A stretch of DNA of 47,619 nucleotides from Priapulus caudatus. Taxonomy: Eukaryota > Priapulida > Priapulimorpha > Priapulimorphida > Priapulidae. How positions within the stretch are numbered: the stretch's first letter is position 1; each line of letters begins with the position of its first letter. A program made the translations under genes and the position numbers. The stretch is taken from NCBI RefSeq assembly GCF_000485595.1, contig NW_014577587.1, forward strand, positions 298,133 through 345,751, written 5' to 3'. The notes beneath the pieces are model-generated. The model was not told the origin of the DNA. It saw nothing but the letters and a program-made list of their open reading frames with translations, and searched no databases. Below, piece by piece: positions 2,003 to 41,784 of the stretch.

Positions 2003-4328
2003 AACAATCGGTGTCAGTTGATTTCGGGACAGGTATAATTCCCCAATTCATTTATTATCTGCATGGGAAACGAGTTGTGCCGACAGACAGGCGTTTTATT
2101 TGTTCTTATAACTGCGTGTCCGGGCATAGCAAGAAGTGTCTTTGTTCTTTTTTTCGTTCTTACGTCTGCAATGTAAGTAGTTAGCAGCGCAACATCTGCC
2201 CCTGGTCCACGCAGCGTCACTCCGTAGTCGTTTACGCTTCTAATTCTGTTTATGTGAATGAGGCAAGTGGGAGAGGAACCGGTTCAATCGGCTTGTTATG
2301 CTTGTGAATGGATTTAGTACGCTTCTGGCATTCTCTGACCACCAATCACCGAGCGCCCAAACTTGCTAACTGACGCAGTCAAACCGGTTGCACTGGCCGG
2401 CCTCGTTTGGCCACACAAAGAGTGCGGTGACAAGATGTGAAAATGCGATATGTGTGCTGGGATGACGCCGGTCTAACTTTCTGGGATGATGGGTTGGGGC
2501 GCGAATAGCTGGGATGGGGGCTTTTTGTCCCATCAGTCGGCGAGGGTAGTCTTACGTTTAAGCGATTGCAATACGATGCCACGCAATCCGTCTCCCGTGA
2601 CTGCATGCTTAACTTAGGTAGTAAGCAGAATGTTTGGTTCAAAGGTGTTAGTATATCCCCCTAGCCAAGTGTCGATACTGCCAACCGTGTTTCAAATTTG
2701 GCGCGTCGCGCACTCGAGCATATTTTTCACCGGGGTACATTATTTAGAGTGGCCATCGCAAGATTTCTGTAAACGCGTAGGGTCTTTTTTTCCAACCCGG
2801 GACAGTCTATGCTGCAGTCTGCGCAGCGGCAGAATCAGTCGTTTGTCTCTCACACAAAGCGACCAGAGTGTCGAGCCATTCGTGGTTGCCCGTTCGCTCA
2901 CTGGCAGGTTTGCTGTCGTTATTTGAACCGGTGCTCCGAGGCGCAGCGTTAAAGGCGTCAAGATAGCCATTTTATCCAGAGATCGGGTCAGTGGCTGTAC
3001 GACTGCGCGGGCGGGCGCGATATTACGCAAACTTCGGGGTTTCGGCGGACTGTCGGACGTCTCATAGCGAGACATGTGTTGTTGCTCTTGACACCAGAAG
3101 CTACCGTATCGAATTGCGTGTGCTTCCTGGAGGCAGGCCTGCTGTGTGGCCTTCCCATGCCACTTGCTGCGGGAGGCAAATAGACTGTATACGGTCACGG
3201 ACTCAACTAGTGGGTTCTAGTCGCGACTGCTCTAGGCTTGCGTCTTGAGTGTTATGTGTGGACAATGAATGACACGTAATTCACAGTGACGTTGGTTTAT
3301 TTCGATACGGGTGTGATTCAAGTGCCAAGAAGGTTATTTGCGGTGCGAAGGAGACCAATTCCTGTGGATGACTGTGTTTCTGGTGCATGTAGTTGAGAAC
3401 CATGACTAGATCCACACTCATCCACAGTAAGTGGTAAATGTGACAGCGCGCAGTGAAAAACAAGGGAATTATGTAGAATATCGGTAGTTCAATGTTTATA
3501 TCCGTGTAACCTAGTATGGATGCGTTGTACTATATATGCTCATTCAATTGCAATTAATTTACTTGTTCCATAAAATAATGTTAAATCTAATTCCGTATAT
3601 ATGATATTCACATGATTCGTATGATATGACGATGGCTTACGCAAATGCAACTTGTAATAATTAATAATTCTATGGTACTGAGAATATTAGTTAATTGAAA
3701 ATAGGCCTAACTCACGAAATTTTGTGTATAAAAGTAATAAACACTCTATTATGTGTATTCTAAATATTGTCTTGATATTTTTTTATATATATTTAGATGC
3801 GGTATGAGATACAGTAAGTAGCAAGGACGGGTCACATACCGGACACTTGTAGTGAACTCGTTTTTCACGTCAGCCGCTCGATCGGTGCCTCGGTCGTTGC
3901 ATACCATAAGTGTACCCATCCCACTTCCAGCATGCACTTGCATGCCTATACAAATAGCAGTAGCGGTATGCGTAATGTACAAGCAATGCACATATGACAG
4001 CAAGCATATATATATATTATTATATATATATGGAAATTGTGGCAACGCTTCTCTAGTATCCCGTCTCATCTGGATCGGCCTCCATAGTTTAGCGGTTGAT
4101 CGGCCTCCATGTGTTGGAGGGAGGGGGGCTTTCTAGTGCGCATTCGAGGGCGCTGCTTGTAAATCTTTGTTCGGGGTGTGTGTGCGGAGACGGCCCCACC
4201 CCCTCTGCTAGTAGGGTGCTCCCGCACACCAGCTGCTGCGGCCGAGTGTCCCATTCAGTTTGTGTGCTCTAGCGAAAAGATCACAAGGTTAGCATTGGCG
4301 GTAATATTCGCTTCGGGAAGATGCTTTT
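2003..4328. other. Stretch without a recognised gene
   Basis: Several open frames of 60-150 codons lie on both strands, the longest on the minus strand at 2740-3198 (152 codons). None shows a recognisable domain or convincing splice continuation. GC content is higher at 2400-3250 than in the surroundings. I see no tRNA, rRNA or transposase here. Confidence 0.5.
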
Positions 4329-4768
4329 AGCGCCCCTGGTGGATGTATGCCCTATAATGGCCTAGATGACCCTGCACATTAAAACCGCGTTAAGAGAGAC
4401 CTCTTAAGCTATATCTATTTTTTAAATATCATATTACCAAAAAATAGCGATGAAACTTCACGAGCGTGCATTCAATTGGATAGGATAGTTTTTTTTTAAT
4501 GCGGGAGCATTGGTGAATAATGTAAAATTGTGTAAACAAGCACAGTACGTCGGTTTATATTCAAGTTGATTTCAGCGCACATGCAGTTTGTTATCTTGAT
4601 GTAGATAATACGATAAATAACACGAAGTGAAACAATATTAACAAATTTTAAAATTGTAACAACAGTAATTGTGTACGTGATAAACGTGATGTACACGCTG
4701 CCCATACGTACGCTGTACGCGCGTAATTAGATTCGCAGGTAATAGTGTCACAGGAATAGATTGCCGGG

Positions 4769-4840
4769 TCAGCTTGGTCGGTGAATACCCGATAGGTGTG
4801 CTAATTCTTCATCACCGGGTATACATTCGTCCAAGTTTGC
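4769..4840 (+). ncRNA. microRNA-type hairpin 1, miR-35/36-like seed
   Basis: A foldback of about 72 nt. The 5' arm (AGCTTGGTCGG...ATACCCGATAGG) pairs with a 3' arm that contains TCACCGGGTATACATTCGTC, starting at 4812. Nucleotides 2-8 of that arm read CACCGGG, the seed of the miR-35/miR-36 family of nematodes and flatworms. The CTTGG/CCAAG base and the ATACCCG/CGGGTAT core pair well, with small internal loops, as in a Drosha/Dicer substrate. It is the first of five such hairpins on the same strand. The open frame that overlaps it appears to be a by-product. Expression is not shown by sequence. Confidence 0.8.
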
Positions 4841-4904
4841 ACGGCTATATATACGTACACGGATACAGGAGTTACAGGATACGGACTACACCTCCGTTTG
4901 TCAG

Positions 4905-4980
4905 AACGCCTTACTCGGTGCATGGGTTCCCGGTAGGTGGCGCTGCGAGCATCACCGGGTACACATTCATCCCAGGCTGG
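4905..4980 (+). ncRNA. microRNA-type hairpin 2, miR-35/36-like seed
   Basis: The second foldback in the cluster. Its candidate mature arm, TCACCGGGTACACATTCATC, starts at 4952, 140 nt downstream of the equivalent point in hairpin 1. The 5' arm (GGGTTCCCGGTAGGTG) pairs with CATCACCGGGTAC across a loop of about 11 nt. Its outer 5' stem looks less regular than in hairpins 3-5. The seed CACCGGG is unchanged, while the loop and outer flanks differ between copies. This is the pattern expected of selection on the mature arm. Confidence 0.78.
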
Positions 4981-5079
4981 TGTTTCTCGTCTGCCCTGCA
5001 AGGAGATTTCATCGCAAGTACTGCCCATACGATGAATACCCGTATTACAGTACCGCTGAATGAAGCAGATTATATGGTG

Positions 5080-5152
5080 AAACTACTGGGTGCGTGTGCG
5101 TCCGGTAGGTGTCACTGCGAGCATCACCGGGTGCACATTCATCCCAGCTGGA
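5080..5152 (+). ncRNA. microRNA-type hairpin 3, miR-35/36-like seed
   Basis: The candidate mature arm TCACCGGGTGCACATTCATC starts at 5124. The 5' arm CTGGGTGCGTGTGCGTCCGG pairs with it almost throughout: the CTGGG base, TGTGC/GCACA and CCGGT/ACCGG are matched, G-U pairs fill between them, and there is a one-base bulge. The loop is about 10 nt. This is one of the cleanest precursors in the cluster. Confidence 0.82.
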
Positions 5153-5251
5153 TCTACCGCTGCAACCGCCCACATCGTATGCGCGCGCAAAATTAATAAT
5201 TATAATGATTGATATAGCCAGACACATTGGCGGCGGGAATTTCGCAGACCT

Positions 5252-5322
5252 CATGCTTGGGTGATGGGCGTCCGGTCGGTGTTGTGTGAAACCATCACCG
5301 GGTGCACATTCATCCTAGTATG
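5252..5322 (+). ncRNA. microRNA-type hairpin 4, miR-35/36-like seed
   Basis: The candidate mature arm TCACCGGGTGCACATTCATC, starting at 5295, is identical over 20 nt to that of hairpin 3. The 5' arm starting CATGCTTGGGTGATGGGCG pairs with it over about 30 positions without a length difference, using several G-U pairs. The spacing from hairpin 3 is 171 nt. Confidence 0.82.
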
Positions 5323-5435
5323 TTCTGCAGTTGCCTCATACTTTTAGACGATGGTGTCACCTGATTAGCCTGCGTATGCGTGTAAGTGGGTGGTTAGATT
5401 TGTGGAGCCTCTGCACGGAGGATTGTGAAAGTACA

Positions 5436-5515
5436 GCAATCTAACTTGGCGGGTGGGTGCCCGGTAGATGTCACGTATAAACGTCACCGGGTGAACATTC
5501 GTCCAAGTTAGTTGC
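5436..5515 (+). ncRNA. microRNA-type hairpin 5, miR-35/36-like seed
   Basis: The candidate mature arm TCACCGGGTGAACATTCGTC starts at 5484. The base of the stem is long: CTAACTTGG at 5441 pairs with CCAAGTTAG near 5510, and GCAA/TTGC extends it. The core CCCGGT pairs with ACCGGG. No further CACCGGG hairpin follows downstream, so the cluster ends here within the window. Confidence 0.82.
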
Positions 5516-5522
5516 ATCTATA

Positions 5523-6350
5523 CGTCGATCGCGAGCTTCATATGAGTCCAACTAACAGTGTGTGAATATGTTTGACTACTATTGCGTTAAAACTGGGAGA
5601 CGAACGATGTGAACATTAACGCGTGATTTAATTTCGGCCATCATTTTACCGTCTAGTAGTGTAAAAATCGTTATAATCTTATGCATCCTATTTATAATAT
5701 TTATGAACGATTTTCCTAAGACCACCGAAAATTGTTACAGAACTATAATTCATAACTCGTCTCTCTAGTCTGAATCGCGTTCTCATATAGATAATGTTAT
5801 GTTATCAGGTCATGTCATCGACAGTACTATATATACCTTATAAAACCATGAGATGTTACTCGCATTTTAATTTGTATAACCACAATAATTTTTATATATT
5901 TCTTTATGTTCCTTATTTGTCTTTATTTTATTTTATATATATATTTTTTCTTTTCTTATAGATTCACAGAGGTGGTGATCGAATAATTGGTGTTGAACCA
6001 ATTAACCTGTCGCCGCAGCATATGAAGCCATCACAGAGAAGCCATGCGTCTGCTGCTAAGCGTGAAACACGCCATTGCACGCGAACGTCCTACGACTATT
6101 CGCGATACTTCACGAACACCAGTTTAGCGTTATATTGATGTATGTATTAATAACTACCAAAGATTAATAACTATAGCGCGATTAATAACAATAATAAATA
6201 TCTAAAATATAGAAGTATAATAATCTTAATATCTAAGTATATATAGATAGTATAGCATGCCATATGAATTGTAAATTGTGTGTTATACCGAAATTCTTTA
6301 TTGTTTTGAATTTTTCCCCAATTTCACATGTTGATATCGCCAGATCCCCA
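5523..6350. other. AT-rich stretch without a recognised gene
   Basis: This region lies downstream of the hairpin cluster and upstream of the CT tract. It is AT-rich. A pyrimidine-rich run ending TTTTCTTATAG at 5950-5960 could serve as a 3' splice site on the + strand, but I could not tie it to an exon. It may belong to the primary transcript of the hairpins. Confidence 0.4.
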
Positions 6351-9998: not shown

Positions 9999-11372
9999 CA
10001 AGAGCGTATTAAGAAGGCTGCTTAGTGGATAGATGTGCTGAAGGGAACGGACTAGGAACCCGTCTATTCCTAGATCAGCTGAGTGAGCAATGATAGATGA
10101 GTCGCGATCATATAGTGACGCCCACATCAACCACGTGGGCGTAGGTAGGGCATAGTTCATTGTAGTGTTGCTCCTTTACCCTGAATAGTGCTAGATCACG
10201 ATCACAGAGCTAGGCTGAAGATTCAATAAAAAGTATGCTGTAGTATATGCTGTTTACATTATGTAGCAGCTGATCTAATATTAGCAAGAGCGTATAAAGA
10301 AGGAACCACGCGAGGTTTCCCAAGTATTCTCAAAGCGAGAGACAGTCGCAGTCAGCAGGTATCTCGAGTCGGTTTTCGGCGAAAATACCAGATTTTCACC
10401 GCTTATTATCTCAGCATGGGGGATCGTAGGGACATGCAGTTTGTTTTATATTAACAAGGTAGGACAGCTGATCAATAATACTGCAAAGAATCGTCAAAGT
10501 AAAACGGGGAAAGTTTATTAATTCGACTAATACTGCAACATGCTTTTAGCATTTCACCGTTGTACGCTCTCCTTCTTTATACGCTCTTGATATTAGCTAT
10601 TCCACTATGGCATGTGCCAGTACGACTCAAAAGCGGATGCACGCGAACGTGAGATAAACGTATTTTCTGGCATGATTTTGCAAAAACGGGTGTTTGAGGA
10701 GGGTATATATAGAGCGCTATATGAACAGCCTTATAAATTGTTATATAACCGTGCTTCTTAATATGAGCTGTGCAATATTGCCAACAGAGCAAGTATGGCG
10801 AAGGTTGTTTTGCGTCGGTTACGACAACGTATAACCTGTTTCAGGCATGTTCATAAGTGCATGTTCGCCTATCTGTGCAAAACTCGATCGACATTAAAAT
10901 CCCGATTTAACATATGCCGATTAGACTGACGATTGGCTTTGACTGTTGAGGGCTGCGTTTAGCTTTGGCCTTATAGCTATAGTGATCACCGACTTAAGAA
11001 GCCGATCTAGAAAGCAATTTCTCGTACTAGTGGCGCGAATTGATGTGAAACCGGTGCGTCGCCATCTCAGTTCTTTGTGCCTCATCAATAAAACGTTATA
11101 TACAGAGCGTGCGTGTAATTCTGTAGTACACATGCACCCATTCAAGCGTACGTGCGTACAAGCATGCGCACATGGGTATGTGTTAGTGCGTGCCAGTGTG
11201 CGTGTCTGCGTGCGTGCGTGAGTGCGTACGTGTGTTTGTGCGCGCGTGCGTATGTGTGCAAGCGTACATACGCGCTCGTGTGTGGTATTACCGTGTTAGT
11301 GCGTAGTCTGTAGCAATGTGTGGAGTAGTGCGATTTTGAAATTGCGCAGCGTCACGCTGTTTTCAAAATTTA
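9999..11372. repeat. 1.4 kb dispersed repeat, copy 2
   Basis: Direct copy of 80-1499, differing by scattered single-base indels and substitutions. It lacks the GGGTTAGGG insertion of copy 1. The nested inverted-repeat element is at 10285-10589. The two copies are 8.5 kb apart with no retroviral coding region between them, which speaks against their being the two LTRs of one retrotransposon. Confidence 0.85.
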
Positions 11373-12948: not shown

Positions 12949-15235
12949 ATGTGGCATGAAGCAAGATTACAACAATATTTTCTAGTGAATAATCGCATTG
13001 TAGATCGTTATAATAGGCCTATATTCGACACCAGTACGACCAAACACGCATTGAGCTGTTTTCCAATTATACCATCTACTTCAGTACGTTGGATTTCGAG
13101 ATGAGACAAGTGTTGGCGGCATGGCAAAAACAATGGAGAGAATGTTGTCTGCCGACCCTGAATTTGGTAGGTTGGAAGAATAAAGGTCAACGATCAGATG
13201 GTCGCGCCGCGTTCACGATCATAAATCGCGATGATGAATACTCTTAAATAACGTGAATAACCTTGGTTTTAAATTCGTAATTTGGGTTGAATTATTCACT
13301 GTGTGTCATCAGCTACCTGTATGGCAGTGATATTGTCGAAATTAAAGGAAAGGCGAATTGTTTCACCTTTGAATATGTCTTTGATTTTGTTGAAATAGTT
13401 TGATAGAATACTACTAAATCCGAGTTAAATATCATAGATTTGTCTTTGTAAAAAGTATGTTTTGTTTACCTTTATAATTATATATGCTTTCTGTTAACTG
13501 CAGTGATGGGACGAGTGATTGTCAACGGATTGACGGTGGTGGGTATGGGTAAATCGCCTCGCTGGGACAAGCAGCTACGTCAGAGTATCGATGAGATGGT
13601 TAGGTTGGCAGAAACGCGTAAAATCACGAAACGCGAAACAAAGCATGTTGAAGCCATTAAATTGCTATCTGATGGGTAAGTTGAAGCATGAACATGCGAT
13701 TAGTTGTGATGAATCTTGGTAATTGCGATTATAAACAAGACAACTCACGTATCCCCTAACTATCGTGTGTTATGTGAAAACAGCAATTATCAAGACGTCT
13801 TAGTAACAGCCAACGTTAATTGTAGCCACCCATCAAGTGAATTCTGATTTCTGCTTTATTTATCAGTCAGGTTAACGTTATAACATTATTTTCTGTGAAA
13901 CAAAGTATTAAGTTTAAAATTAGTGGTTCGTGATTGCGATGTACACTAACTCTAATCCTAAATTCTAACCTATAGTTTTTGTGCTACCCCACATTTGTGT
14001 ATGTTCACGTACATAGATGTTACTAAAATTCTGTGTGCATTTTGCATCTATTTGAAGGTAAAGAACTACTCAATTCAAAGGGCATCAATTAGTATAGTGG
14101 GTATCATAGTAGCGTTCACGAATGAAGACATACCACATGATTAAGAATATAGTGCTAATAATTATCTATCAATATGATGGTAATCCAGAATGCTAATATC
14201 TTCACAGCTATATGTACGAGGCCACGCAAGTGTGGGAAGACATCCTCGTCGACCATCCGACAGACATATTGGCGTTGAAACAAGGTCAAGACGCGTACTA
14301 CAGGCTTGGCAAACCCGTCCAGATGCGAGATTCCATTGCCAGGGTCTTACCTCATTGGGATGCCTCCATTCCGCTGTATGCGTAAGTATTGTGTGTACTG
14401 ACTGCACATATTCTTACAGTGCAAGCAAACGCTTATCTGCGCTATTCTTTTATGCTAGAAAGAATACATTTAGATATTATTTCAGATATCTTCCTGGATT
14501 CTATGCGTTTGGTTTATGCGAGACTGATCACTGGAACGAAGCAGAAAAGAGTGCTAATAAGGTAGAAAAATTCAATGAAAAGTGCATGAGATTCAAGTAG
14601 TGTGGTTTTTGAGAATGTAATATAACATAACACTAACCCGAGTAAATATGTATCATACACTCCAGTTTCTCTTTCGCTTTTCTTCAAATCTTGCCATTTT
14701 GCGGATGTGTGTATGTAGTACACTGCCACACATGTAAAGAGACGCTGTGAATATTTTGGAACTGGTGCAAGCCAGACACACCTTTTGTATGAAACATCAA
14801 ATATGTCATCTCTTTTTAACTGAATGGACTGAATTAAGATTTTTTTTTACATGACAGGGCATTGAGCTTATTCCAACTAGCTCATGGGCAACGCATGTCT
14901 TAGCTCACGTATACGAGATGCAGGGAAGGACCCAGGAGGGTATATCCCACTTAAGCACAACGCTGGATAACTGGACGGTAAAAAGAGATAACACATATAA
15001 TCTCGCACTTGAGAAAAAAATGCATCAAAATTATCTGTCAATTTCCGTTTTAGGTAATATTACATTACGATTTTGTATCTTCTAGGATCATAGTTCGGCT
15101 CCATTGGCTAACCACATATTTTGGCACTGGGCAGTTTTTCACATAGAAAGGGTGAGTTTTACGTGCCTTCGTTCACCTGTAACTGCGCAATTAGTCACCA
15201 TAAACACGCACGCACGCACGCACGCACGTACGCAT

Positions 15236-15270
<35 letters not shown>

Positions 15271-16844
15271 GATACATAATCATCACAAATACATATTATC
15301 AGGAGCGTATAATGACAAATACAACTATGACAACTATGAGTAATTCCTATTCATGTGTAAACACACTAGACCGTGTAGTAACGTTTACACGAGATTGAAT
15401 TGTTTCATGTGTTTTTATACAGGGTGAATATACAGCGGCTCTGGACCTGTTTGACTCACAAGTAAGCGAATGTACGGTGCGCCAAATTAGTGTAAGGGAT
15501 ATGGGTTGTTTTGCGAAAAATTTCTTGGTTAGTATATATATATCTCCGATTTATGCGAGAGATAAACCTCACATAAAGGGAAATTGTTAATATTGATTAT
15601 CATTCAAGTATCAGGAANNNNNNNNNNATATATATATATATATATATATCAGAAGTAGATAATAGGGAAATTAGGAATAGGGAATAGGGAAATTCCCTAT
15701 TATCTACTTCTGATATACATTGTGTGCGCGTTTACGCAGCATGGTTGAATTCTGCAGGTGTGACAGTCGGGCAGGAGCGCTGGGAGGACGTAGCTGAAGT
15801 ATGCCGACCGCGCCTGGACGAGCACACGAGTGTCTTCAACGATTGCCATCTACTCATGGCATGTCTTAGTGCGAAGAAGAGCAGCGACGTTGATCACCTA
15901 ATCGGGTCCATTAAAACATACGTAATGGAGTACGTTAACATTGGTCTTTCCTTGCGACTTCTGTCAAGATTATGTTTGTCTGTGATAATCTCATATAATT
16001 TAATGGCATGGTTTTATTGCAGGGTGGGCACGGGGACGCAACACAAGCTCTTCGAAACTGTGGGTAAAGCCATGACGAGAAGTTTGGTTGCGTACGGGGA
16101 AGGTCGATACAGTGATGCTGTCCGAATTCTAAATCCACACAGATACAGTATCATTGATATTGGAGGTAGCAACGCGCAGGTAAGCTGGGCTTATACATAG
16201 ATATACTATTTATACGCGTATTATTTGATGGGCTTACTCTGCATGGACTAATAATATAAACACTGTAAGTATATAGGCTTACTAGCGCTTATAAACCCGT
16301 TAATTAACCGTAGAAGGTAACTGTTGTCGGCAGAGCAACTAACTGTCAATGTCTATGAGTTTGCAATATATTAATACGATTGAATGTGCGTTACTGCATC
16401 CTATTACTAAAATGGAGACGGAGAACAATTTTCCACGCGTCTTACGTCAATGCAAAGTACGATAACTAGACGTGGCGTTCTATTATATAGAGAGACGTCT
16501 TCAAGCTCTTTCTCATAAATGCTGCGATACGGTCTAACACTCCTGAACATCGAAGACTCGCAAGGTACGTGTGTGTGTGTGTGTGTGTGTGATCAAATAC
16601 GCGGCGAGTGAGCTCGGGTGCGCTTACCTTTTATAATCGTATTAAGTATTATATACCATTATTAAGTATATAGCATTAATAAGTATACGAACATTTCAAC
16701 TGTTACACCGCAGGTATCCGTGTGAGGTTAAGCCTTGTTTATGCCGCTTGCAGATCACTGGTGATAGAACGCAAAGCGTACAAGCCAGACTCACCGATGA
16801 CAGACCGGCTGATGGAGCGTGTCATGGCTTTACATGATAACTGA
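12949..16844 (+). CDS. TTC38: Tetratricopeptide repeat protein 38 homologue
   Basis: Exons with matched splice sites and phases lie at 13504-13675, 14208-14381, 14486-14561, 14858-14977, 15086-15151, 15423-15461, 15758-15929, 16023-16179, 16491-16564 and 16754-16844 (stop TGA). Family landmarks read in order: DHPTDILALKQGQDAYYRLG, YLPGFYAFGL, ATHVLAHVYEMQGR, FWHWAVFHIERGEY, FNDCHLLMACL, GGSNAQRDVF and the end PDSPMTDRLMERV. These match vertebrate TTC38, a soluble TPR protein of about 470 residues whose molecular role is not established. The first coding exon, ending at 13166 with SADPEF, joins in phase to VMGRVIVNG. Upstream, STTKHA and the continuation LLQYVGFRDE are in different frames, an apparent one-base frameshift near 13051-13056. 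The exon for the MLDVVD-type segment is missing next to a 10-N gap. The start codon at 12949 (MWHEARL) is tentative. Confidence 0.88.
15206..15270. repeat. (GCAC)n microsatellite in a TTC38 intron
   Basis: About 16 tetranucleotide units, with one GTACGCAT interruption, in the intron after the exon ending at 15151. Confidence 0.9.
15604..15613. other. Assembly gap of ten Ns
   Basis: Ten N bases directly before an (AT)n run and a foldback element. One coding exon expected for TTC38 between 15461 and 15758 is not found here, so the gap may hide more than ten bases. Confidence 0.95.
15649..15718. mobile_element. Short foldback element, AGAAGTAGATAATAGGGA family
   Basis: The left arm TCAGAAGTAGATAATAGGGA and the right arm TCCCTATTATCTACTTCTGA are exact inverted copies around about 30 bp. 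It is flanked by (AT)n on the left. The same ends bound elements at 19206-19251 and 27127-27922. Confidence 0.8.
16565..16753. repeat. Last TTC38 intron with a short (GT)n run
   Basis: A (GT)n run of about 22 bp follows the donor GTACGTGTGTG. The rest is AT-rich with TTAAGTAT words. Confidence 0.6.
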
Positions 16845-19976: not shown

Positions 19977-22900
19977 TCACATGGCATCAAAGTGAAAGCG
20001 ATGAGCTTCCTGCAGCCTCTCCTTCCGATCTGCAACCTATATGCAATAATTGGTATTAGTAATAGTAAACCCGGTCTTGAGAAATAACTGACTGCATAAA
20101 AGACACGGATGTTGGTGACACTAAAGTTCAATGTAAATGTGACACTATACGTCAGTCATGGCGCACACATTTACTTTAGAAGTGATCACTTTTTATCATT
20201 ATAATAAAAACGCATTATTACATGCTAGTCTAGATGCTATGACCACTTTCGAGCTATTAGACAAGAATGAGACAAACTATAAAACTTGTGCATGACTGCC
20301 AAGTCTCCCAAAATGCAAGCTTTCTGAATTTACAAAGCATGTTAAATCACACCTAAGGCAAGGTAAACTGCAGAAAGATGAAATCTGAAGTTGGGAATGA
20401 TTTGGTAAATATGTAAATTTACTACTGTATTATAAATGAAATTATTGCTTTCATATATGCTTTGTGATTTTCCATTCCTACCCCATCTGATACATTCTAT
20501 TCTAATTGTTCAAAATCAATTATAGTTATTAATAGACCAAAAATAGCATTCGTCTATTACCTTTTCCCTCCAGTGGAGCACACCAATGATGCCAGCAATG
20601 AATCCACAGATGCCAAGCAGTAACGCACCTGTTATCAATACCAGCTCACTTGGAGTCACGAACAGCTTGATTACCCAGCTGAAAATACGAATGAATAAAT
20701 AAATAAATACGTAGAATCTCCTGATATATATACATATATATATCACTACATAATTTACGATATAAGGGAAAAAACAGGAATTAAAGTTTATAAATGAGAC
20801 ACATCAGCTAGTTAAGGTACAGACGAATAGCAAAACGTAATAAAAGATACTACAAGTTTACTTGGGTGGGTACTACACAGTTATTAAACTCTATGTAACA
20901 AATTGGGACTAACATAATTTCTCCATGCTAAAAGGAGTCTACCCAATTAGCATTTGGCGGATATTAGTACAGCAATACCACCGTTTGATGAAAGTTAATG
21001 CATTCCAGAAAAAGACACTCGTAATGTGGAAAGCCATAATTCAGATCATGTTGCCCCATTGACTTCCATTATATATTTGTAGGATATATTTGTGTTCTAA
21101 TAGATTAGATTACACAGCTTAGCACAACATTCCCTACAGCATTACTGATTCATCTCCCACAAGATCAAATATTACTTATTCAAATAATCTCAAAGATATT
21201 ACACACAGTTAATTAAAAGAGCATGAAGACGTCCACTAAAGAGAAAACTTACTACTCTGCATTGCTATTTGGATGAGGAATGATGATGACTTGAGAATTA
21301 GGAATGATCGTGGTCCACTCATGCTGCCTCACATCCTACAAGAACATAAAGGTGTAACAGATATAGATTTTTCTATTGTGATGCCTAAGGTTCAAGACAA
21401 AGACAGTATAATCACCAGATTAAAAAACACCTGGAACTGAACATAAATCTACTATGTAACAACCATATCAGGTATATAATGATCAGGTTTATAATTAATG
21501 CGTATAAACTGGTAAAAAGGTGGTACTTGGTACTGTTGTTTAGTTGTAATTCCAAGCATATTTTTAAAGTTAGCATATGCACGTAGTTCAATTGCACATC
21601 TAAATAGACATTGTCCGTGACTGTCCACACAGCTCATGCAATCAACTTATACTTGAACATCACAGATAATGCATTATTTCAGAAAGCCTTTTCTGTGCTT
21701 CTCGGCAAAGTATAATACTGGATGGGATTGTAAAACTGGTGGACAGACTGTACTAGGAGCAACTGTTTACCTCGCCTTGAGGATGTGGGATTCCAACACG
21801 TATCGTGTCAACAAAGTTGGGTGTTTGCCCCAGTCCAAACACCGTGTATGGCAACTGTAGAGCGAAGTGTGCAGACTGTGACAGCTGTGTTGCTGTAGCA
21901 AAATTAGAATTGAGTTACAGCAAATATCAACTCAAACAGGCTCAACTACCTTAGAAAATAGGGGCAATGGAATATTTATTTTTTATTTTTACACCAGACT
22001 TATAATGTGACCTGTTTAAATGTAATCTACATCACGAGAAATCCCAGAAAGGCTGTAATGGCAAGCAATATACATCATATAGTAGGTAAGTTACCTCGAC
22101 TAGTCTGTAGAGATCCGTCTGGCCTTCGTGTGTCGTACTTTATCACTGGGCCTGCCTGGTTGACTCCATAAGGCTACATATCCAGTATACGCAATAGAAA
22201 TAAACATTTTCCATGTTGTAAATAGCAATATCACAAACTTTTGCATATTGAATAATAACATGCAACAATTAATATACATATTATCAGTGGGTTGTGTTGT
22301 GCAGAAATTATTTCTATAATATGAATTAAGGCAACTTCTTATGAATAACTCAAGGCAACCACTAGCTGAAACCAATAATAGACCAGATTTCGTTTAAATG
22401 ACACTGTACACTTTTATATACAATAATACAGAAACTTACAACTTTGTAGCCAGGTAGGCAGTCCCTACACATCCCACTCAGAACTGGGAATAAAATAAAT
22501 GGGTTACTAAACAGTACAAGCAATACCTTTTGCGCTGGTTAAACTGCAGGTAAGTTCTTCCAATATGACGAGCGACATTTCAAGTGAAAACGCGTCTGAC
22601 AATTCCTATACGTGTGAACTGGATTTTGACCTGCAAGAAAGGGATGCAACGTACCTATAACCTTGAGAAAACAAGCATCTTCTGTGAGGACATTCAGCAA
22701 TGCATGCAGCTGTGCAGGCTTATCCTCAGATGACTGATGATTTGCCACCAAGATATCCAACACACCCTATAACAAATCATAACCAGATGAACTGACACCA
22801 CACCTAACTCATACCTATTTGCCTAAACAGCAAATAATGAAATAGTCTCCAAATCGTTTCTCAATACGAACTACATTGTAATTACATCGTTTCTCGTTGC

Positions 22901-25900
22901 AATATATAAAACATTCTTCCTGTCATCTTTATCTGCAGTTCCGGCTTATTATCAGAACTCTCCACATTACTTACGTCTTCGTATATGTCATAGAAAGCAA
23001 CTAGGACTGGTCTGTCAATGCTGATCAAAGGATTCATGTCCCATTGCACTTCGAGAGTCCTCCCCACTGGCTGGCATTTGCTCACTGAGCTACTGCACTC
23101 AACATTCAGCAGCAGCACTGCTCGCTGAACAAGTTCTCTGAAACAAGGTACCGAGTAATCATGGCATTGTGAATTGCAATGACTTATATCTGTCTGCTGC
23201 TCAACACCTAGTCATTAAACAGGAAAACGATCCCATAGCACAGATCATGCACATCTACGATACTTCAGGTGTATCCTTCTACGGTAACCTCCAGTCCGGC
23301 ATACCAATTAAGTTTGAGGCACACATGCACACATAGAGATCACTATACTCAAGGTAATCACATATTACATTCACATAAGCATATATCAATTTATATTCAT
23401 CACCACATGTCAGCATAGATGTCTACATAGTATCTAGCAATACAGTTCGTTTATTAGAGAAACTCAAACTCACTAATCACTCACCCATCAATCTCACTTT
23501 GCAGGATTGTCACAGCATCTGGATATCCATCCAAGTTGAAGTCTCCAAACCTGAGGGTCATTCCTCCAGTTGATCGTTCAGTGGGCCTGGCAAAGCCCCA
23601 AGCCTCTTTACCCTTGTTGAACTCTGACACCAATGGTGTCCACTAGAGTAGAATAATTGGAAAGAATTAATTGTCTATCAAAGAGCGTATATGCAGAGCA
23701 TATCACATACATTTTCAAGGCTTTAATAGCTTTATGGTTATCCAAACCCATCACAGCACAATTCTTCAAATTATATTTTCAGATTCCAAATTGGACACAG
23801 AGTAAAAGAGTAAGTAATTGTCATAGAAACTGAAAAATAACTGACATAATATACTATATACTAATTTAACTGACATAGCATTGTGTTGGTAGTAACTATT
23901 AGCATGAAAATATATGTATATCCTATACATATAGCTGTGCATATATTCATGCTATTATTGTATTATAAATAGTACTTTATCATACTATACAACTCATGCC
24001 TATATTTATTATAAACATTAGAGATCAAGTTGCGATGAGTAAACTGCAATCCACCCTATTCGCATTCACATATTATTACTGCCACTTTACATGCCAGTGA
24101 TTGTCTCATTCACATAGATGGTGCAAGATGCTCATAACCAATTAAACGTAAAAGTAATGTAGACAATGTAAATTGATAACATTCGTATTCATTATATGTC
24201 GCTTGCTTATATATTCTTTATACATGAGTGCAAATATTTATTTGATACTATTTTATACAGTATGAGTGCTTGATAAAACATTTCTACTCAATTCAGCTTA
24301 AGCCACGTACTTAACTACCTTTATAAGTGCAAGGAGATTAAATCCCTTGCCCCAAAAATGATTAAAAAAACTCGTGGTTACTGACACATTTCTCATTACA
24401 GTTGTCCAAAGTATCTCACTTTCTCTAGCATGATCCTTACCAGTATATTACAATAATGTCAGTTTAAATTCACTTGCACAGGTACAGGAAATGCCATTGC
24501 ACTAGCCATAGTACACTATGAACATATGCACTATAGCAGCAGTAATGCACTGGCACAGTAACAGGTTACGCTCCTGACAAATGTTCTAGGTACATAAACG
24601 TAATGGCAACTTTATTCAACATTCAGCTATTTTGCAACATTTGCACCTAGTATAATCTCCATCGCAGTGGATTTAAGTCTGTGATGTTAAACTTTGTAGA
24701 ATAATTACATGCATCCTGAGGAGCAGGATTTAGGATTTAAGATGCATGGTTTTCTTTCATAGACAACTGGGCAGCACAAGATGCAAACCGAACTCCAACA
24801 AAAAATGAAACGAACAAGTTGCAGATGTGCATTCATTCTCTGTGCACCAGTGACAAACAGTACCTGGTCTTCAACGTCCCTGGCAATGCTATGCTGCAGC
24901 AACAATGTAAGGAAGCTACACACTTATCACAGACCTGACTGTGGATAACATTGGCAGACCTATCTGTCACCAGGAATGGATAGCACACAACATCCTTCAC
25001 AGTATTGCACATGTAGAATGCCTACCAATAAGTTTCTCGACTATTAATTACTATTTACTATGAGCTCGTCTATGCGTAACAGTAATAATATTGCTTTTCT
25101 AAACCTGAAAACACCACAACATGATAGCCTTATTAGCTTTATGCTAGACCCATGAAATTGTTTGTGGTTAAATGTTTACAAAAGATCAACTGGCTCACAG
25201 AGAAATATTGGGTAGGGTTTCTTTTTTTAAATACTAGTCCTTAAATATAAGAATTTTATGCGGTTAGAGCCGTCAAATCCTTGATACCATTCATCCTTAT
25301 TTATGATAAATGTGTGATCCAGTTAAGTTCACACATCAGCAATCTTAATTGGTACTTACTGACAAATTTGCAAAAGAGAAAACATAGATGGCACTGTCTT
25401 TACAGAAAGCTAGGCCACACACAGGTAGAATGTGCTCCAGATTACCATCACCATCTGTGTTAATGAAAAGTACAGTCTCTACATGAAGTGTAAAATATGA
25501 ATAATATATATATTAAAATACACACACAAATTTTCTAAATGGTGCAACAAATTAAGAGGAAGTAAGAGAACTTAAGAGAAAATTACTAAATACTCTCTTG
25601 TGCCATTAACAATACTAATGCTGAGAGAGTCTATGTTGCCCAGGGTACTGCCGGAACGTACACTGGGTACGGTCCGGTATACCGGAACGTACCCTGGTAC
25701 TATCTAATATGCCGGACCGTACCTCGCCTCCTCCACTAACGAGTCTAGGGAGTCACCTACGCCTACTCTCTAACCCTAACCCTAATCCTAACCCTAACCA
25801 TATCAAATAGTGACCAGGGTACGTTCTGGCAGTACCCTGGGAGACATAGACCCTATGAACAATACTAACCAATATCAGCAAAACTAGACTGCCCAACATG

Positions 25901-27095
25901 GTCATAATGCACACTTGCATCGAAGCTATAGTTGTATTGAAAACTCAAGACTCCATTCTGAAATCAAAAAAGGGGAAAAATATATAAAATACATACCATT
26001 CTGCAATCTGAACGACGAGCGGAAACACTGTTATAGATGCACATTTTTGTCATGCTAGTTTCAAACTGCTCTAAGAATAATGAGACACTTATGAATACAC
26101 TTATGATACACTTATGAGACACTTATGAATACACTTACCATGTTGTACCAAACTTCAAATATGTATTTATCACCATCCATTGTTGTTACAAACAAGTCTG
26201 TAATCACACAAGACAAGAGGATATTATATTCTTAATGGTCAATTAGAACTTCTGTCAACCAGCAATACCAAGATACACACATCTACAATCAACCTAGGCC
26301 CACACTAGTCTAGGGCCACTACGATAAACCCACTAATAGATAACCTAATACCTACCAGCAGTGAAGTCACTGTTGAGATCCACAAAAGCACACGAGTGAG
26401 GAAATGTGAGGGGGTGAGTATGTAAGGTAGAGTTTTTGATGTGTTCAGCCACAAACTTGCTCCGTGTTCTAAAATATACAAGAAGTTATCACACTTAGTA
26501 ACACAAGAGTAAAATCAATGTTTAGCATCAAAGGTACTGTGCACAATAAAGGCAGGACTATATCATTCACTTTCGTGAGCACCTGCAAACCTTCTGAATT
26601 TGAATTTATCTGACTGACACAAATGTAGGGGATGTGAGGCTAACTAAAAGATGCATGTGCTACGATGATATTATTAAACAGAGCCAATAAATAGTAGATA
26701 TGATCACAAACCTATAAATCCAATGAAACCGACCTCCAGTGCTCTTCTCACCATAAAGATCAGGAATCATGTCTGCATCATAACTGAAATGTAAATTGAT
26801 ATAATTTTTTAATTCACATTTTACCTAAATGTATATTTAAATTATTATTGGCAAAACATTGTTGGTCAATTTTCCAAATTTAAAATATGTAATTTTATTT
26901 GGATACATAATGTATAAGTAATGCAAATTAACCTTACTCCATGACTAGTGGTTGATCTCTTAGCTGGTCTTCCAGTTTCATTGGATTCCCATCTATAAAA
27001 AAAGTTTGTAAACATTTAAATTTATACATTTCTATAAGCCTTTAGCATATTGTAGCAAAAGTGAAATGGCTATATAATTCATGCTTATATGTATG

Positions 27096-27128
<33 letters not shown>

Positions 27129-30100
27129 CAGGAGTAGATAATAGGGAGGAGTGTGACATCAATAAACAAGGGAAATTCGTCATTTACTAGTCTTATAATA
27201 CCTACGATTTACTACGCGTAACTCATCCAACTTGAGCTCAAATCAGACACAGTACATTCGCCAATCATCGTGCGAAATCGTTTCCTCGTAGACACCCGCA
27301 ATCCGGAGAATACAGCCTAAAACGTACGACACGATTCTCCGTTCTTTGCCATCAATCCAACGCCATTGCGCGCCTATATTCAAACAAAAGGCAGCTACCT
27401 AACGCGCTATTGCTAACTGAGCAAGGCATGTGGCGTGGGTTGGAGATTAGGCATCACACTCGCGAGATAACCTTTGACCCGGTACACAACTACACAGGCC
27501 ACCTTTGTACATAGCTGGCATGCCTTCACGCACAGCACGCCAACGCATGATTAGCTCGTCGAGTGTTGCGTCGATCTCCAATCTCCCCGCGAGCACAACG
27601 CCACATTCAGCTACCCGAGAGAGCAAACACAGCGACTGCGCGGCAGTGTTGCTGCCTTTTGTCTGAATTATAGGCGCGCAATGGCGTTGGATGATGGCCA
27701 AAGAATGGAGAACGTGTCGTACGTTTTAGGCTGTATCTCCGGATTCGGGTGTCTACGAGGAACGACGATTTCGCACGATGATTGGCGAATGTACTGTGTC
27801 CGATTTGAGCTCAAGTTGGATGAGTTACGCGTAGTAAATCGTAGGTATTATAAGGCTAGTAAATGACGAATTTCCCTTTGTTTATTGAATGTCACACTCC
27901 TCCCTATTATCTACTCCTGATCTATATATATATTATTGTATTATATATATATATATATATCAATACAAACTTTATCATGACTACATATACTGACCTTAAC
28001 AGTATAGCTTTCAATGCTTTTACTGTAGCAATTACCAGCATCAACACCATAATACAGGATTTATGAAAATGTAATCAATTACCAATGGAAATAAGGTTGC
28101 CCCAATATATGCTGACATTAACAGGTGGATTCTTGGTCTGATGATGTTCTGGTACTAGTGTGACTAGAACATCCATTTTTGAATCCCCATCAAAGTCACC
28201 CGGCACAACAGAAGTAAAAAGAGCATTCTCCCTGCAAAAGAAAGTTGTAAATGTGCAATCAGACTCAAGTAAACACAGCAGTTTCTCTACAAAAGAAACA
28301 TAAAATGTACAAGTGGCGCTATATATCTTTACTTTCATTAGAAATTCTTACTAATAAACTTTTACCATTTGATTCAATTGCAAAATATTTATATCACCAT
28401 TATAATTATTGTTGCAATGTCAAAATCTAACTCCTTAACCAATAAGAACTTTATGCCTTACTCAGTCTTGTTCTATTCTTGTTGTGATAGGGATTATAAC
28501 CATCACAGCCACATGTATGCATATTTCACTATTCATGTTCAGTATTTTTGTACTTACTCTGCTTTTATCACAAGGGAAGAGCTCACCAGAAGTGGGGCTA
28601 CTTTATCAGCCAGAAGAATTTCAACAGTTTTGCCTATAACAGAAAATGAGTATGGACAATATAAATTGTGACTTACATAATATAATAATTACTAACATAA
28701 ATGTCGTGATAATTTACACCATGTTTGAGACATTTATAAGCTAGGTTACAAAAAGGTAATATCCACGCTCACTGTTATTCACATGTAATGACCGTAATCA
28801 CGGTTGACTTTAAGGTGCTGCAATCTAAGCACCCACATCATAAATAGTGGATTACGTATACCACATTCGTAACACTGTCAGCTGTTCAATCCAAGCCAAT
28901 TGCAAACTGTGTGAAGGGTGTGGGCATTAATGCAGCACTGGTGACTTTGAACTTTCTGATTAAAAATACTTAAAAGCAAAAAAAGCAGTGTGAGAGCACT
29001 CCAACATCGCATTGCGTGTAATGGGCATATAACATACCTGCCAACCCTACCGATTCGTGCAGTAACCTAGAAGCTGACTACTGCCTACCGACTACTGATT
29101 TTAACTGCCTATCCTACAGCTTTCCACAATTTTGAAAAGAAATCAAAATTGTTTTACACTCGCACGTGGCTATTACTGTTGCTGCGTTGCACACGCATAC
29201 ATCTAAATCTGGTGATCTGCCCGTGTGTTTGTGAGTCTCTAGCCTGTGTCAGATACAGATCTCAGACAGCATACAGATATGAGACAGTGTCCAGATCTCA
29301 GACAGTGTACAGATCTCAGACAGTGTAGAGATCTCAGACAGCATACAGATATCAGACAGTGTACAGATCTCAGACAGTGTACAGATCTCAGATAGCGTAC
29401 AGATCTCACACAGTTTACAGATCTCAGATAGCATTCAGATCTCATGCAGTGTACAGATCTCAGACAGCGTACAGATCTCACACAGTGTACAGATCTCAGA
29501 CTGCATACAGATCTCAGATAGCGTACATATCTCACACAGCATACAGATCTCACATAACGCGCAGACCTCAGATAGCGTACAGATCTCAGATAGCGTACAG
29601 ATCTCAGACAGCGTACAGAGAGCACGTTTGTAATCTGGATCTGGATAGTTTACTGCGTAGCCCACGGTTACGTGGATAATAACGCAGGGCTATAGCTATA
29701 GCCATGGGTGTGACCTATAGCTTGGGTAAAGCCAGATAGTTAGCCTTTAGCCGAATGGCACTGAGGGTGATCACAGCCAGAGTTTTTTTGCGCCCTCAGT
29801 GGTTTTTTTACGTCGATCCCCATTGGCCTTAATTAGTATTACTGGAGACGGGAACGCCATTTTACGTGGTCATCCGAGCCACGGGAGATTCAATCTCCAA
29901 TGTTGAGAGCCAGGTTTTTACACCTTGAGAAAATTCACTGCCCCAGCCGGGGTTTGAACTCACAGCCTTCAGGCTTCAGTGGACAGTGTACGAAGCCTAA
30001 CCACTCGATCTGTAACCAACACTGTAATGTGTCAATACAGATTTCACAATTTTCATTTTGTACCATCTTTTTTCATAAATTTGTCTCCGGGTGCATGTTA

Positions 30101-30926
30101 TTACTATTACTATAGTATTACTTAGTATTAAGCACGCGACTGCGTCACACAGTGGCCTAACCGGGGCTGATAGGGTCTATGTCCCCCAGGGTACTGCCGG
30201 AACGTACGGTACCCTAGGTACAGTCCGGTATACCGGAATGTACCCTGGTACTAAATACTACTATCTAATATGCCGGACCGTACCTCGCCTACTCCACTAA
30301 CGAGTCTAGGGAGTCGCCTACGCCTACTCGATCCCTAAACCTAACCCTAACACTAACCCTAACACTAACCCTAACCATATCAGCTAGATATAGTTACCAG
30401 GGTACGTTCCGGTATACCGGACCGTACCCAGGGTACGTTCCGGCAGTAACCTGGGGGACATAGACCCTATCCTAACCGACTCTACCAGCCTCTATCAGTA
30501 CTATCACTGTATCAGTCTCTGGGCGACTCTATCACTATCAGCCTAACCGGGGTTAAACCCGCTCTCTTAAAATCAGTTGGCAGGTACCTGAGAACAGTAT
30601 ATAGTATACCATGATCATGTATGTCAGGTAGGCATGCTATCATGACATGACTATCACTAGCTCTAGTACTACAGCCCATGTGGCAACAATGGAGATAGGA
30701 TAGAGTAGTGTAGAGTATCACTTCAACACTTGCCTGAATCTTTTATTAGAAACACATCTGTGAGTTTATCGGCATTAAAATCGCCAAACGCGGCTATGAG
30801 GCCATTTATTCCACGTCCATACACATCCTGAGAAACGTCTGTAACAGTAGATGCTGTTGATATTGAGGGAATAACCATAATAAAAATTATACACCAGAAA
30901 AGCTTCATCATATTCTTTTCATTCAT
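19977..30926 (-). CDS. ITFG1: ITFG1/TIP homologue (integrin alpha FG-GAP repeat containing 1)
   Basis: Complete gene of 18 exons, 612 codons plus stop. Exons in transcript order: 30734-30926, 28558-28633, 28083-28231, 26938-26992, 26712-26783, 26356-26468, 26139-26197, 25870-25957, 25360-25454, 23485-23642, 22975-23137, 22655-22766, 22440-22483, 22095-22173, 21771-21892, 21253-21335, 20561-20678, 19977-20036. All phases agree. The protein has a signal peptide (KLFWCIIFIMVIPSISTA), then FG-GAP/calcium-type loops (FGDFNADKLTD, PGDFDGDSKMD, IGDVDGDGNLEHILP, FGDFNLDGYPDA). A single C-terminal membrane helix follows (LVLITGALLLGICGFIAGII). The short tail ends EAHRFHFDAM, nearly identical to the vertebrate tail. 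TIP/ITFG1 is a conserved type I membrane protein with a beta-propeller-like ectodomain. Intron 1 begins with GC instead of GT. Confidence 0.96.
23643..25359 (-). other. Longer ITFG1 intron, nothing else recognised
   Basis: A 1.7 kb AT-rich intron between exons 9 and 10. The 72-codon minus-strand frame at 24705-24923 has no recognised domain, and its segment is not needed for a continuous ITFG1 protein. Confidence 0.5.
25626..25858. mobile_element. MITE with telomere-type repeat, copy A
   Basis: The ends are AGTCTATGTTGCCCAGGGTA (left) and TACCCTGGGAGACATAGACC (right), imperfect inverted copies, with inner words GTCCGGTATACCGGAACGTA. A short CTAACCCTAACCCTAA run lies inside. It sits in ITFG1 intron 8, starting about 12 bp after the exon 8 donor. 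A second copy lies at 30170-30471. Confidence 0.8.
27127..27922. mobile_element. Long foldback element in an ITFG1 intron
   Basis: An 0.8 kb palindrome-like insertion in intron 3. The ends are ATCAGGAGTAGATAATAGGG and CCCTATTATCTACTCCTGAT. The inverted match continues inward for about 250 bp per arm, with scattered mismatches, through GTGTGACATCAATAAACAA, ACTACGCGTAACTCATCCAA and CAATGGCGTTGGATGATGG. A unique centre of about 270 bp remains. Both sides are flanked by (AT)n. Short frames are open at 27447-27701 (-) and 27681-27866 (+), but neither has a recognised domain. The ends are shared with the small elements at 15649 and 19206. Confidence 0.85.
29255..29617. repeat. 18-bp minisatellite in ITFG1 intron 1
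   Basis: About 20 head-to-tail copies of an 18-bp unit of the form GTACAGATCTCAGACAGT, with AGATAGCG and CACACAGT variants. The period is a multiple of three, so long open frames appear on both strands (MYRSQ- and SEICTL-type repeats). These are artefacts. Confidence 0.92.
29690..30015 (-). mobile_element. tRNA-derived SINE-like element
   Basis: Read on the minus strand from about 30013, an A-box-like GAGTGGTTAGGCTTCG is followed about 40 nt later by a B-box-like GAGTTCAAACCCC, the layout of an RNA polymerase III promoter in a tRNA-derived SINE. A non-tRNA body follows (GGGGCAGTGAATTTTCTC, then TTGAATCTCCCGTGG). The family is not identified. Confidence 0.6.
30170..30471. mobile_element. MITE with telomere-type repeat, copy B
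   Basis: The ends are ATAGGGTCTATGTCCCCCAG and CTGGGGGACATAGACCCTAT, apart from one base within the inner part. The interior is shared with 25626-25858, including CTCCACTAACGAGTCTAGGG, and contains a run of CTAACCCTAACACTAACCCT. It lies in ITFG1 intron 1. Confidence 0.85.
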
Positions 30927-41635: not shown

Positions 41636-41784
41636 ATATTAATGCCTGCTGTTGGGGGCACTATGCTCTCATAGTGTTGCTGAGGGAAGAAATAGTGCCC
41701 AAGCGGTAAACCGTAGCGAGGGCACTATTCCTTCCAAAGCAACACTATGAGAGCATAGTGCCCCCAACAGACAGGCATTAATGT
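41636..41784. mobile_element. Palindromic MITE
   Basis: ATTAATGCCTGCTGTTGGGG at the left returns as CCCCAACAGACAGGCATTAAT-type sequence at the right, and GGCACTATGCTCTCATAGTG is matched inside both arms. The arms are about 50 bp; the inner part also pairs (AATAGTGCCC with GGGCACTATT). Confidence 0.85.

What the first reader, a model, noticed from the sequence alone, without database searches (positions are those of the whole stretch)
4769..5515. Five tandem microRNA-type hairpins with the miR-35/miR-36 seed
Five foldbacks of 70-80 nt stand on the same strand within 750 bp. In each, the 3' arm begins TCACCGGGT and continues with A/C-rich sequence ending CATTCRTCC, and the 5' arm pairs with it across a short loop. 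Seen directly: the seed CACCGGG is unchanged in all five; candidate mature arms start at 4812, 4952, 5124, 5295 and 5484, with spacings of 140, 172, 171 and 189 nt; outer flanks and loops vary, yet pairing is kept in most copies by matched changes and G-U pairs. Known: CACCGGG is the seed of the miR-35/36 family, clustered in C. elegans (miR-35 to miR-41) and essential in its embryos; flatworms also carry a miR-36. Inferred: this is an independent expansion of that family, probably cut from one primary transcript.
Basis: partly seen in the sequence, partly recalled or inferred. Interest (0 to 1): 0.9.

Follow-up and report, generated by a model that had tools for sequence, protein, structure and literature searches.

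The report
Priapulid worm miR-36 microRNA gene cluster
This stretch of a marine penis-worm (priapulid) genome carries five side-by-side copies of a microRNA gene related to one that nematode embryos need, with a second old microRNA, miR-279, just upstream, which hints that the two microRNA families share an origin.

Summary
The five hairpins are real. TCACCGGG starts the 3' arm at 4812, 4952, 5124, 5295 and 5484; all five give the same product geometry. Four of five fold better than shuffles; copy 2 does not. Likeness between copies is high in the mature arm (88%) and at chance in loop and flanks: old microRNA paralogues, not a minisatellite. The mature arms match snail miR-36a at 18-20 of 22 positions. 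The animal is most likely Priapulus caudatus (ITFG1 exons).

MIR-36 and MIR-279 relatives are also clustered in C. elegans (mir-42 to mir-44). The MIR-279 hairpin resembles the five miR-36 hairpins more than any of 3000 pair-preserving permutations, so the families may be paralogues; Echinococcus and mite pairs do not show it. Expression, a shared transcript and function are untested. New members of a known kind, with an evolutionary link worth testing.

The parts
3353..3436 (+). MIR-279 precursor hairpin; 5p 3367-3389, loop 3390-3402, 3p mature 3403-3424 (UGACUAGAUCCACACUCAUCCA)
   Evidence: Rfam RF00754 64.6 bits, gathering 56; z -5.47; mature 22 of 22 identical to bgl-miR-279-3p
4755..4853 (+). 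miR-36 hairpin 1; 5p 4777-4798, loop 13 nt, 3p mature 4812-4833
   Evidence: (z -3.58); 20 of 22 to bgl-miR-36a
4903..4986 (+). miR-36 hairpin 2; 5p 4917-4939, loop 12 nt, 3p mature 4952-4973; weakest fold
   Evidence: (z +0.70 for 4910-4983); 20 of 22 to bgl-miR-36a
5065..5164 (+). miR-36 hairpin 3; 5p 5090-5111, loop 12 nt, 3p mature 5124-5145
   Evidence: (z -4.01); closest to copy 2 (81% over 80 nt); 19 of 22 to bgl-miR-36a
5229..5336 (+). miR-36 hairpin 4; 5p 5260-5281, loop 13 nt, 3p mature 5295-5316
   Evidence: (z -3.85); 19 of 22 to bgl-miR-36a
5421..5527 (+). miR-36 hairpin 5; 5p 5449-5470, loop 13 nt, 3p mature 5484-5505
   Evidence: (z -6.25); best Rfam mir-36 match, below gathering; 18 of 22 to bgl-miR-36a

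Best explanation
A microRNA gene cluster of a priapulid (most likely Priapulus caudatus): one MIR-279 gene followed, 1.4 kb downstream on the same strand, by five tandem MIR-36 genes. The five hairpins are transcribed, probably together, cut by Drosha and Dicer to 22-nt 3p microRNAs that share the seed CACCGGG, and these repress one common set of mRNAs, the copies adding up in dose. By analogy with C. elegans mir-35-42, the likely time of action is germ line and early embryo. Shown here: sequence, fold, geometry, family likeness, linkage. Inferred: expression, one transcript, processing, targets, timing.
For: Five copies with an unchanged seed and uniform geometry; four of five fold beyond shuffles; compensated pairs; conservation peak in the mature arm, mean pairwise identity 88% against 57% shuffled, loop and flanks at or near chance; 18-20 of 22 identical to bgl-miR-36a-3p, 14-18 of 22 to emu-miR-36a/b; MIR-279 neighbour above Rfam gathering; five reading frames that overlap the hairpins (the longest 168 aa stop to stop, 4690-5193) match no Pfam family at E up to 1; no further convincing copy in the window. 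Published: miR-36 (CACCGGG) and miR-279 (GACUAGA) are listed as protostome families (PMC4326209 table); C. elegans mir-35-41 lie within 796 bp and mir-42-44 within 307 bp (PMC2486268); the mir-35-42 family is the most abundant in early C. elegans embryos and essential (PMC12324485).
Against: No small-RNA or transcript data. Copy 2 folds no better than shuffles at 74 nt. No Rfam mir-36-clan model reaches its gathering score (best 19.5 against 48). Recalled processing signals are incomplete: CNNC at 15-18 nt after the 3p end in copies 2-5 but not in copy 1, apical UGU in copies 1, 3, 4 and 5, UG at -14 in none. In oyster and Brugia pahangi the dominant arm of miR-36 hairpins was reassigned after sequencing (passages), so which arm acts here is open. 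bgl-miR-36a itself rests on 2 and 5 reads.
Confidence: 0.9

Rival explanations
1. MIR-36 and MIR-279 are paralogous families: an old tandem duplication of one hairpin was followed by a change of seed, and the linkage in this window and in the C. elegans mir-42-44 cluster is what is left of that event. (An addition to the best explanation, not an exclusive rival.)
For: A covariance model of the five miR-36 hairpins picks the MIR-279 hairpin as its best match outside its training set in 47.6 kb, both strands: 24.6 bits, E 5e-6; next stretch outside these six hairpins 13.4. Alignment score 7.2 against a mean of -8.4 for pair-preserving permutations, 0 of 3000 reach it, and 20 other window hairpins (my choice of 53 listed) reach -5.0 at best. 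Mature 3p identity 14-15 of 22, 10-11 of 14 at positions 9-22; among 80 snail matures 279 and 36a are each other's top partner from another family (14, next 10). Rfam's second-ranked row over the cluster is mir-996 of the mir-279 clan on copy 5, 18 bits, E 0.93.
Against: Seeds differ (3 of 7 agree). The pairs in Echinococcus (8 and 9 of 22) and dust mite (6 of 22) show no such likeness. Other between-family snail pairs also reach 14 of 22 or more: 1984/1985, 1175/750 and 34/7 without shift, and with shifts up to 2 also miR-67 with three miR-2 and 100/125. In the 5p arm two of five copies are not better than shuffles. No Rfam mir-36 model hits the MIR-279 hairpin, while mir-978 (26.3 bits) and MIR6151 (19.7) do, so a score in the 20s is not proof. 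Snail and priapulid miR-279 matures are identical, so they are not independent tests.
Confidence: 0.5
2. The five units are a minisatellite or transposon-derived repeat that happens to fold.
For: A 1.4-kb repeat occurs twice in the same orientation, 80-1499 and 9999-11372, on either side of the cluster.
Against: Likeness between units stops at the hairpin edges and is highest in the mature arm; Tandem Repeats Finder reports no array at 4755-5530; no further convincing copy in the window; match to snail miR-36a. The rest of the genome could not be searched.
Confidence: 0.03
3. The five-copy cluster is not an independent expansion but shares ancestry, copy for copy, with the nematode mir-35-41 cluster.
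For: Both lineages have tandem miR-36 clusters under 800 bp (and this window).
Against: Mature arms here keep a mollusc-like 3' half (18-20 of 22) and are 11-14 of 22 to the Rfam mir-36 consensus; in B. malayi no such array is reported: three of four miR-36 paralogues each sit by a miR-2 paralogue, in two groups on a 23-kb scaffold (passages).
Confidence: 0.12

Closest known systems
miR-36a of Biomphalaria glabrata (PMC7328434)
   Same: seed CACCGGG, 18-20 of 22 mature positions, 3p arm
   Different: one mature listed there, with 2 and 5 reads; five tandem genes here
C. elegans mir-35-41 cluster
   Same: tandem miR-36-family genes within 796 bp (PMC2486268)
   Different: seven copies; the Rfam mir-36 consensus differs in its 3' half; no MIR-279 is named in that cluster in the passage seen
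C. elegans mir-42-mir-43-mir-44 cluster
   Same: a miR-36-family gene (mir-42) close to a miR-279-group gene (mir-44), within 307 bp (PMC2486268)
   Different: contains a miR-2-group gene (mir-43), none found here; one miR-36 copy
Brugia malayi miR-2/miR-36 clusters (PMC4019659)
   Same: several miR-36 paralogues in microRNA clusters
   Different: partner is miR-2, not miR-279; no tandem miR-36 array
Drosophila miR-309-6 cluster (miR-6/5/4/286/3/309, PMC10139094)
   Same: miR-286 is in the miR-279 group (PMC2486268), miR-3 has seed CACUGGG (Rfam consensus), one base from CACCGGG; miR-309 acts in the early embryo
   Different: seed differs by one base; that review says the cluster has no counterpart in the worm

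Membership tests
MIR-36 (miR-35/36 seed family) | 3p mature arm that starts UCACCGGG, seed CACCGGG | tested here: met
   five of five
MIR-36 (miR-35/36 seed family) | likeness beyond the seed to published members | tested here: met
   18-20 of 22 to bgl-miR-36a, 16-18 to emu-miR-36a, 14-15 to emu-miR-36b
MIR-36 (miR-35/36 seed family) | hairpin with at least 16 paired bases between arms and a loop of at least 8 nt (MirGeneDB-type criteria, recalled) | tested here: met
   17-20 of 22 paired, loop 12-13 nt; copy 2 weak against shuffles
MIR-36 (miR-35/36 seed family) | reads from both arms with 2-nt offsets and fixed 5' ends | not testable with these tools
   no small-RNA data
Rfam RF00685 mir-36 / RF00794 mir-42 / RF04298 mir-36_2 (precursor models) | gathering score | tested here: not met
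   19.5 of 48, 15.8 of 70, 15.3 of 46 bits; not filed under these models
MIR-279 (RF00754) | Rfam gathering score | tested here: met
   64.6 against 56
MIR-279 (RF00754) | mature UGACUAGAUCCACACUCAUCC | tested here: met
   22 of 22 to bgl-miR-279-3p
Polycistronic microRNA cluster | same strand, under 2-3 kb apart (limits used in PMC3282659 and PMC2486268) | tested here: met
   MIR-279 mature start to first miR-36 mature start 1409 nt; cluster 4755-5527
Polycistronic microRNA cluster | one primary transcript | not testable with these tools
   no RNA data

The most novel reading that the evidence does not exclude
MIR-36 was born from MIR-279 (or the reverse) by tandem duplication and a change of seed before the protostome phyla parted. 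The Priapulus MIR-279/MIR-36 cluster, the C. elegans mir-42-44 cluster and the Drosophila miR-309-6 cluster (a CAC-C/U-GGG seed plus a GACUAGA seed plus, in worm and fly, a miR-2-group member) are remnants of one ancestral embryonic microRNA cluster, so the worm mir-35 family and the fly maternal-clearance microRNAs would be homologous.
Probability: 0.3. Interest if true: 0.8.

Novelty: new member of a known kind. Interest (0 to 1): 0.5.

Why it matters
Priapulids are Ecdysozoa outside the nematodes and arthropods where these microRNAs are mostly studied, and the sequences here have kept a mollusc-like state. A tandem miR-36 array in such an animal, beside MIR-279, would show that repeated amplification of this essential embryonic family is not a nematode oddity, and it offers a concrete, testable origin for a microRNA family through a change of seed. 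If the link to the fly miR-309-6 cluster held, two embryonic systems that a review treats as unrelated would share a root.

Tried and rejected
Sixth TCACCGGG at 2727: not in a hairpin. MIR-2 seed (TATCACAG): 2 matches against 2.55 expected, not pursued. Viral contigs for the miR-36 and miR-279 mature patterns: 0 and 0; uninformative for animals. The taxon looked at first like another priapulid because the TTC38-like gene is 61% identical to P. caudatus (my note says so); ITFG1 exons then matched P. caudatus, so the TTC38 hits are taken as paralogues, which is inferred. Coding sequence over the hairpins: five frames, no Pfam family.

Literature: no held paper has 'miR-36', 'priapulid' and 'microRNA' together. 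The search for Priapulus caudatus and microRNA found 5,930 papers with two of three terms and listed 25; of these only PMC5531438 held the species name, and its passages give no priapulid microRNA. None of the ten paper searches listed a title on a common origin of MIR-36 and MIR-279, but several lists were capped (20 of 753, 25 of 5,930, 30 of 194), of the papers opened I saw passages or one section only, and subscription papers are not held. Recalled, not seen: small-RNA work on Priapulus in papers of about 2009-2011; so these loci may be known in data that I could not reach.

Full report
The sequence. The five sites share TCACCGGGTNNACATTCRTCC. The site at 2727 is not in a hairpin.

The hairpins. 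Each of the five sites is the 3' arm of a stem-loop. Fold z-scores against 200 dinucleotide shuffles are -3.58, +0.70, -4.01, -3.85 and -6.25 for copies 1 to 5. Copy 2 is therefore weak by this test, although 17 of its 22 mature bases pair and a wider extent makes one stem-loop of -32.3 kcal/mol. From the paired positions the expected cuts give, in all five, a 5p arm of 22-23 nt, a loop of 12-13 nt and a 3p arm set at 22 nt; the MIR-279 hairpin has the same plan. The consensus structure has 30 pairs, 7 with a change on both sides; 86.7% of cells pair, against 34-41% with slid partners and 82.3% in column shuffles (2 of 500 reach). Five related rows are few, so this is support, not proof.

The pattern of conservation. 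Mean pairwise identity is 88% in the 22-nt mature arm (shuffled 57%), 66% in the 5' arm (58%), 55% in the loop (51%), 56% in the 5' flank (57%) and 55-59% in the 3' flanks (55-56%). Likeness that stops at the hairpin edges and peaks on one arm is what old microRNA paralogues show; it does not fit a minisatellite, and Tandem Repeats Finder reports no array there. Copies 2 and 3 are the closest pair (81% over 80 nt), so one may be a later duplicate of the other.

No sign of a protein gene here. A 168-aa open frame (4690-5193, +) overlaps copies 1-3 and shorter frames overlap the others; five of these frames match no Pfam family at E up to 1.

The animal. An ITFG1 (T-cell immunomodulatory protein) gene lies on the - strand at about 20.0-30.9 kb. 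The stitched query hit the Priapulus caudatus protein with 83% identity; the other 119 proteins listed (of 724 hits) have 31-39%. Aligning that P. caudatus protein back to the window gave 18 pieces: 5 are 100% identical (residues 1-66, 65-90, 408-444, 527-553, 594-612), and in the other 13 the mismatches lie at the ends of the pieces, where an alignment runs past an exon (read by eye). Against this, a TTC38-like gene at 15.1-16.8 kb is only 47-81% identical in its aligned pieces to two annotated P. caudatus TTC38-like proteins; I take those as paralogues, but a very near relative of P. caudatus is not excluded. A cuticlin/ZP domain at 44.1-44.4 kb fits an ecdysozoan. Priapulida are placed in Ecdysozoa, Scalidophora.

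The family. The five mature arms are 20, 20, 19, 19 and 18 of 22 identical to bgl-miR-36a-3p of a snail (2 and 5 reads there), 16-18 of 22 to emu-miR-36a, 14-15 to emu-miR-36b, and 11-14 of 22 to the 3p consensus of Rfam's mir-36 model. No Rfam model of the mir-36 clan reaches its gathering score, so the assignment rests on seed, mature sequence and fold. miR-36 and miR-279 are listed as protostome families (PMC4326209, passages), although PMC3282659 and PMC3653858 call miR-36 a worm or helminth family (passages).

The missed neighbour. Rfam's only match at gathering level in the window is mir-279 at 3353-3436 on the same strand; its mature arm is identical in 22 of 22 positions to the snail's. 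It lies 1409 nt upstream of the first miR-36 mature start. In C. elegans, mir-42 to mir-44 lie within 307 bp (PMC2486268, passage), with mir-42 in the miR-35 group and mir-44 in the group of fly miR-279, miR-286 and miR-996 (same paper's tables). In B. malayi, miR-36 paralogues sit beside miR-2 (PMC4019659, passages), and in Brugia pahangi work mir-279 sits 1.6 kb upstream of mir-250 and mir-2c (PMC3282659, passage).

A common origin of the two families? A covariance model of the five miR-36 hairpins was run on the whole window without filters. After the five training copies its best match is the MIR-279 hairpin, 24.6 bits, E 5e-6; antisense strands of the training copies score 12.1-18.2 and the next other stretch 13.4. 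The MIR-279 hairpin aligns to the five with mean score 7.2; 3000 permutations that keep its pairs average -8.4 and none reaches 7.2; 20 other window hairpins, chosen by me from 53, reach -5.0 at best. The 3p arms agree at 14-15 of 22 positions, 10-11 of 14 at positions 9-22, with 4-25 of 100000 letter shuffles reaching that. Among 80 snail matures (of 89 in the table; 9 short or duplicate rows dropped) miR-279 is the nearest other family to miR-36a and the reverse, 14 of 22, next 10. Of 3160 unshifted pairs 17 reach 14, 13 of them within one named family; the others are 1984/1985, 1175/750, 34/7 and 279/36a. With shifts of up to 2 positions 23 pairs reach 14, and miR-67 with three miR-2 (15-17) and 100/125 (14) join the between-family ones. 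In the 5p arm 9-13 of 22 agree; three of five copies beat shuffles clearly (43, 45 and 108 of 20000 reach) and two do not (1374 and 1956).

Results against it. The seeds agree at 3 of 7 only. In Echinococcus and the dust mite the corresponding pairs agree at 8-9 and 6 of 22. No Rfam mir-36 model hits the MIR-279 hairpin, while mir-978 scores 26.3 and MIR6151 19.7 bits on it, so unrelated hairpin models can score as high. I had no set of curated precursors for a fair null. I put a common origin at about one in two.

How it probably works. Published for the family: the C. elegans mir-35-42 members share targets through the seed, are the most abundant microRNAs in early embryos, and their joint loss is lethal (PMC12324485, passages); sja-miR-36-3p is abundant in schistosome eggs (PMC3653858, abstract and passages). 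The likeliest mechanism here is the same: five copies with one seed raise the dose of one repressor of a common target set, probably in germ line and embryo. None of that is shown for this animal. Arm choice is open, since the dominant arm of miR-36 hairpins was reassigned in oyster and Brugia pahangi (passages).

Known and new. Both families are known; no held paper that I found describes these loci (with the limits told in Tried and rejected). The linkage resembles that in C. elegans. The idea that the two families, and perhaps the fly miR-309-6 cluster (composition miR-6/5/4/286/3/309; PMC10139094, passages), descend from one cluster is the novel reading. Its basis for the fly is thin: group membership of miR-286 and miR-6 in PMC2486268, the seed CACUGGG in Rfam's mir-3 consensus and a chance-level mir-3 match on copy 4 (15.6 bits, E 9.3). 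The review states that the fly cluster has no counterpart in the worm.

Noticed in passing
80-1499 and 9999-11372: A 1.4-kb repeat, 95.4% identical, same orientation, on both sides of the microRNA cluster; by eye it holds inverted short motifs (AAGAGCGTAT...AAGAAGG and its reverse complement), so perhaps a non-autonomous DNA transposon.
   Followed up: partly
15104-16835: TTC38-like gene (+), 47-81% identical in pieces to two annotated Priapulus TTC38-like proteins; probably a paralogue.
   Followed up: partly
19980-30926: ITFG1 / T-cell immunomodulatory protein gene (-), exons matching the Priapulus caudatus protein.
   Followed up: yes
44084-44410: Cuticlin N-terminal / ZP-N domain exon.
   Followed up: no
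29254-29619: About 20 copies of an 18-bp tandem repeat between two ITFG1 exons.
   Followed up: no
41638-41782: Imperfect (85%) palindrome of about 145 bp; an 84-nt part folds to -52.5 kcal/mol. Perhaps a mobile element.
   Followed up: no
5943-6200: Pyrimidine-rich tract followed by AG at 5960-5961 and AATAAA at 6193-6198 downstream of the cluster; could be the last exon of a spliced primary transcript. By eye only.
   Followed up: no
PMC10722260, table of novel mite microRNAs: Dust-mite novel-miR34 (UCACCGGGUUUUCGACACCGUU) carries the miR-36 seed but is not named so.
   Followed up: partly
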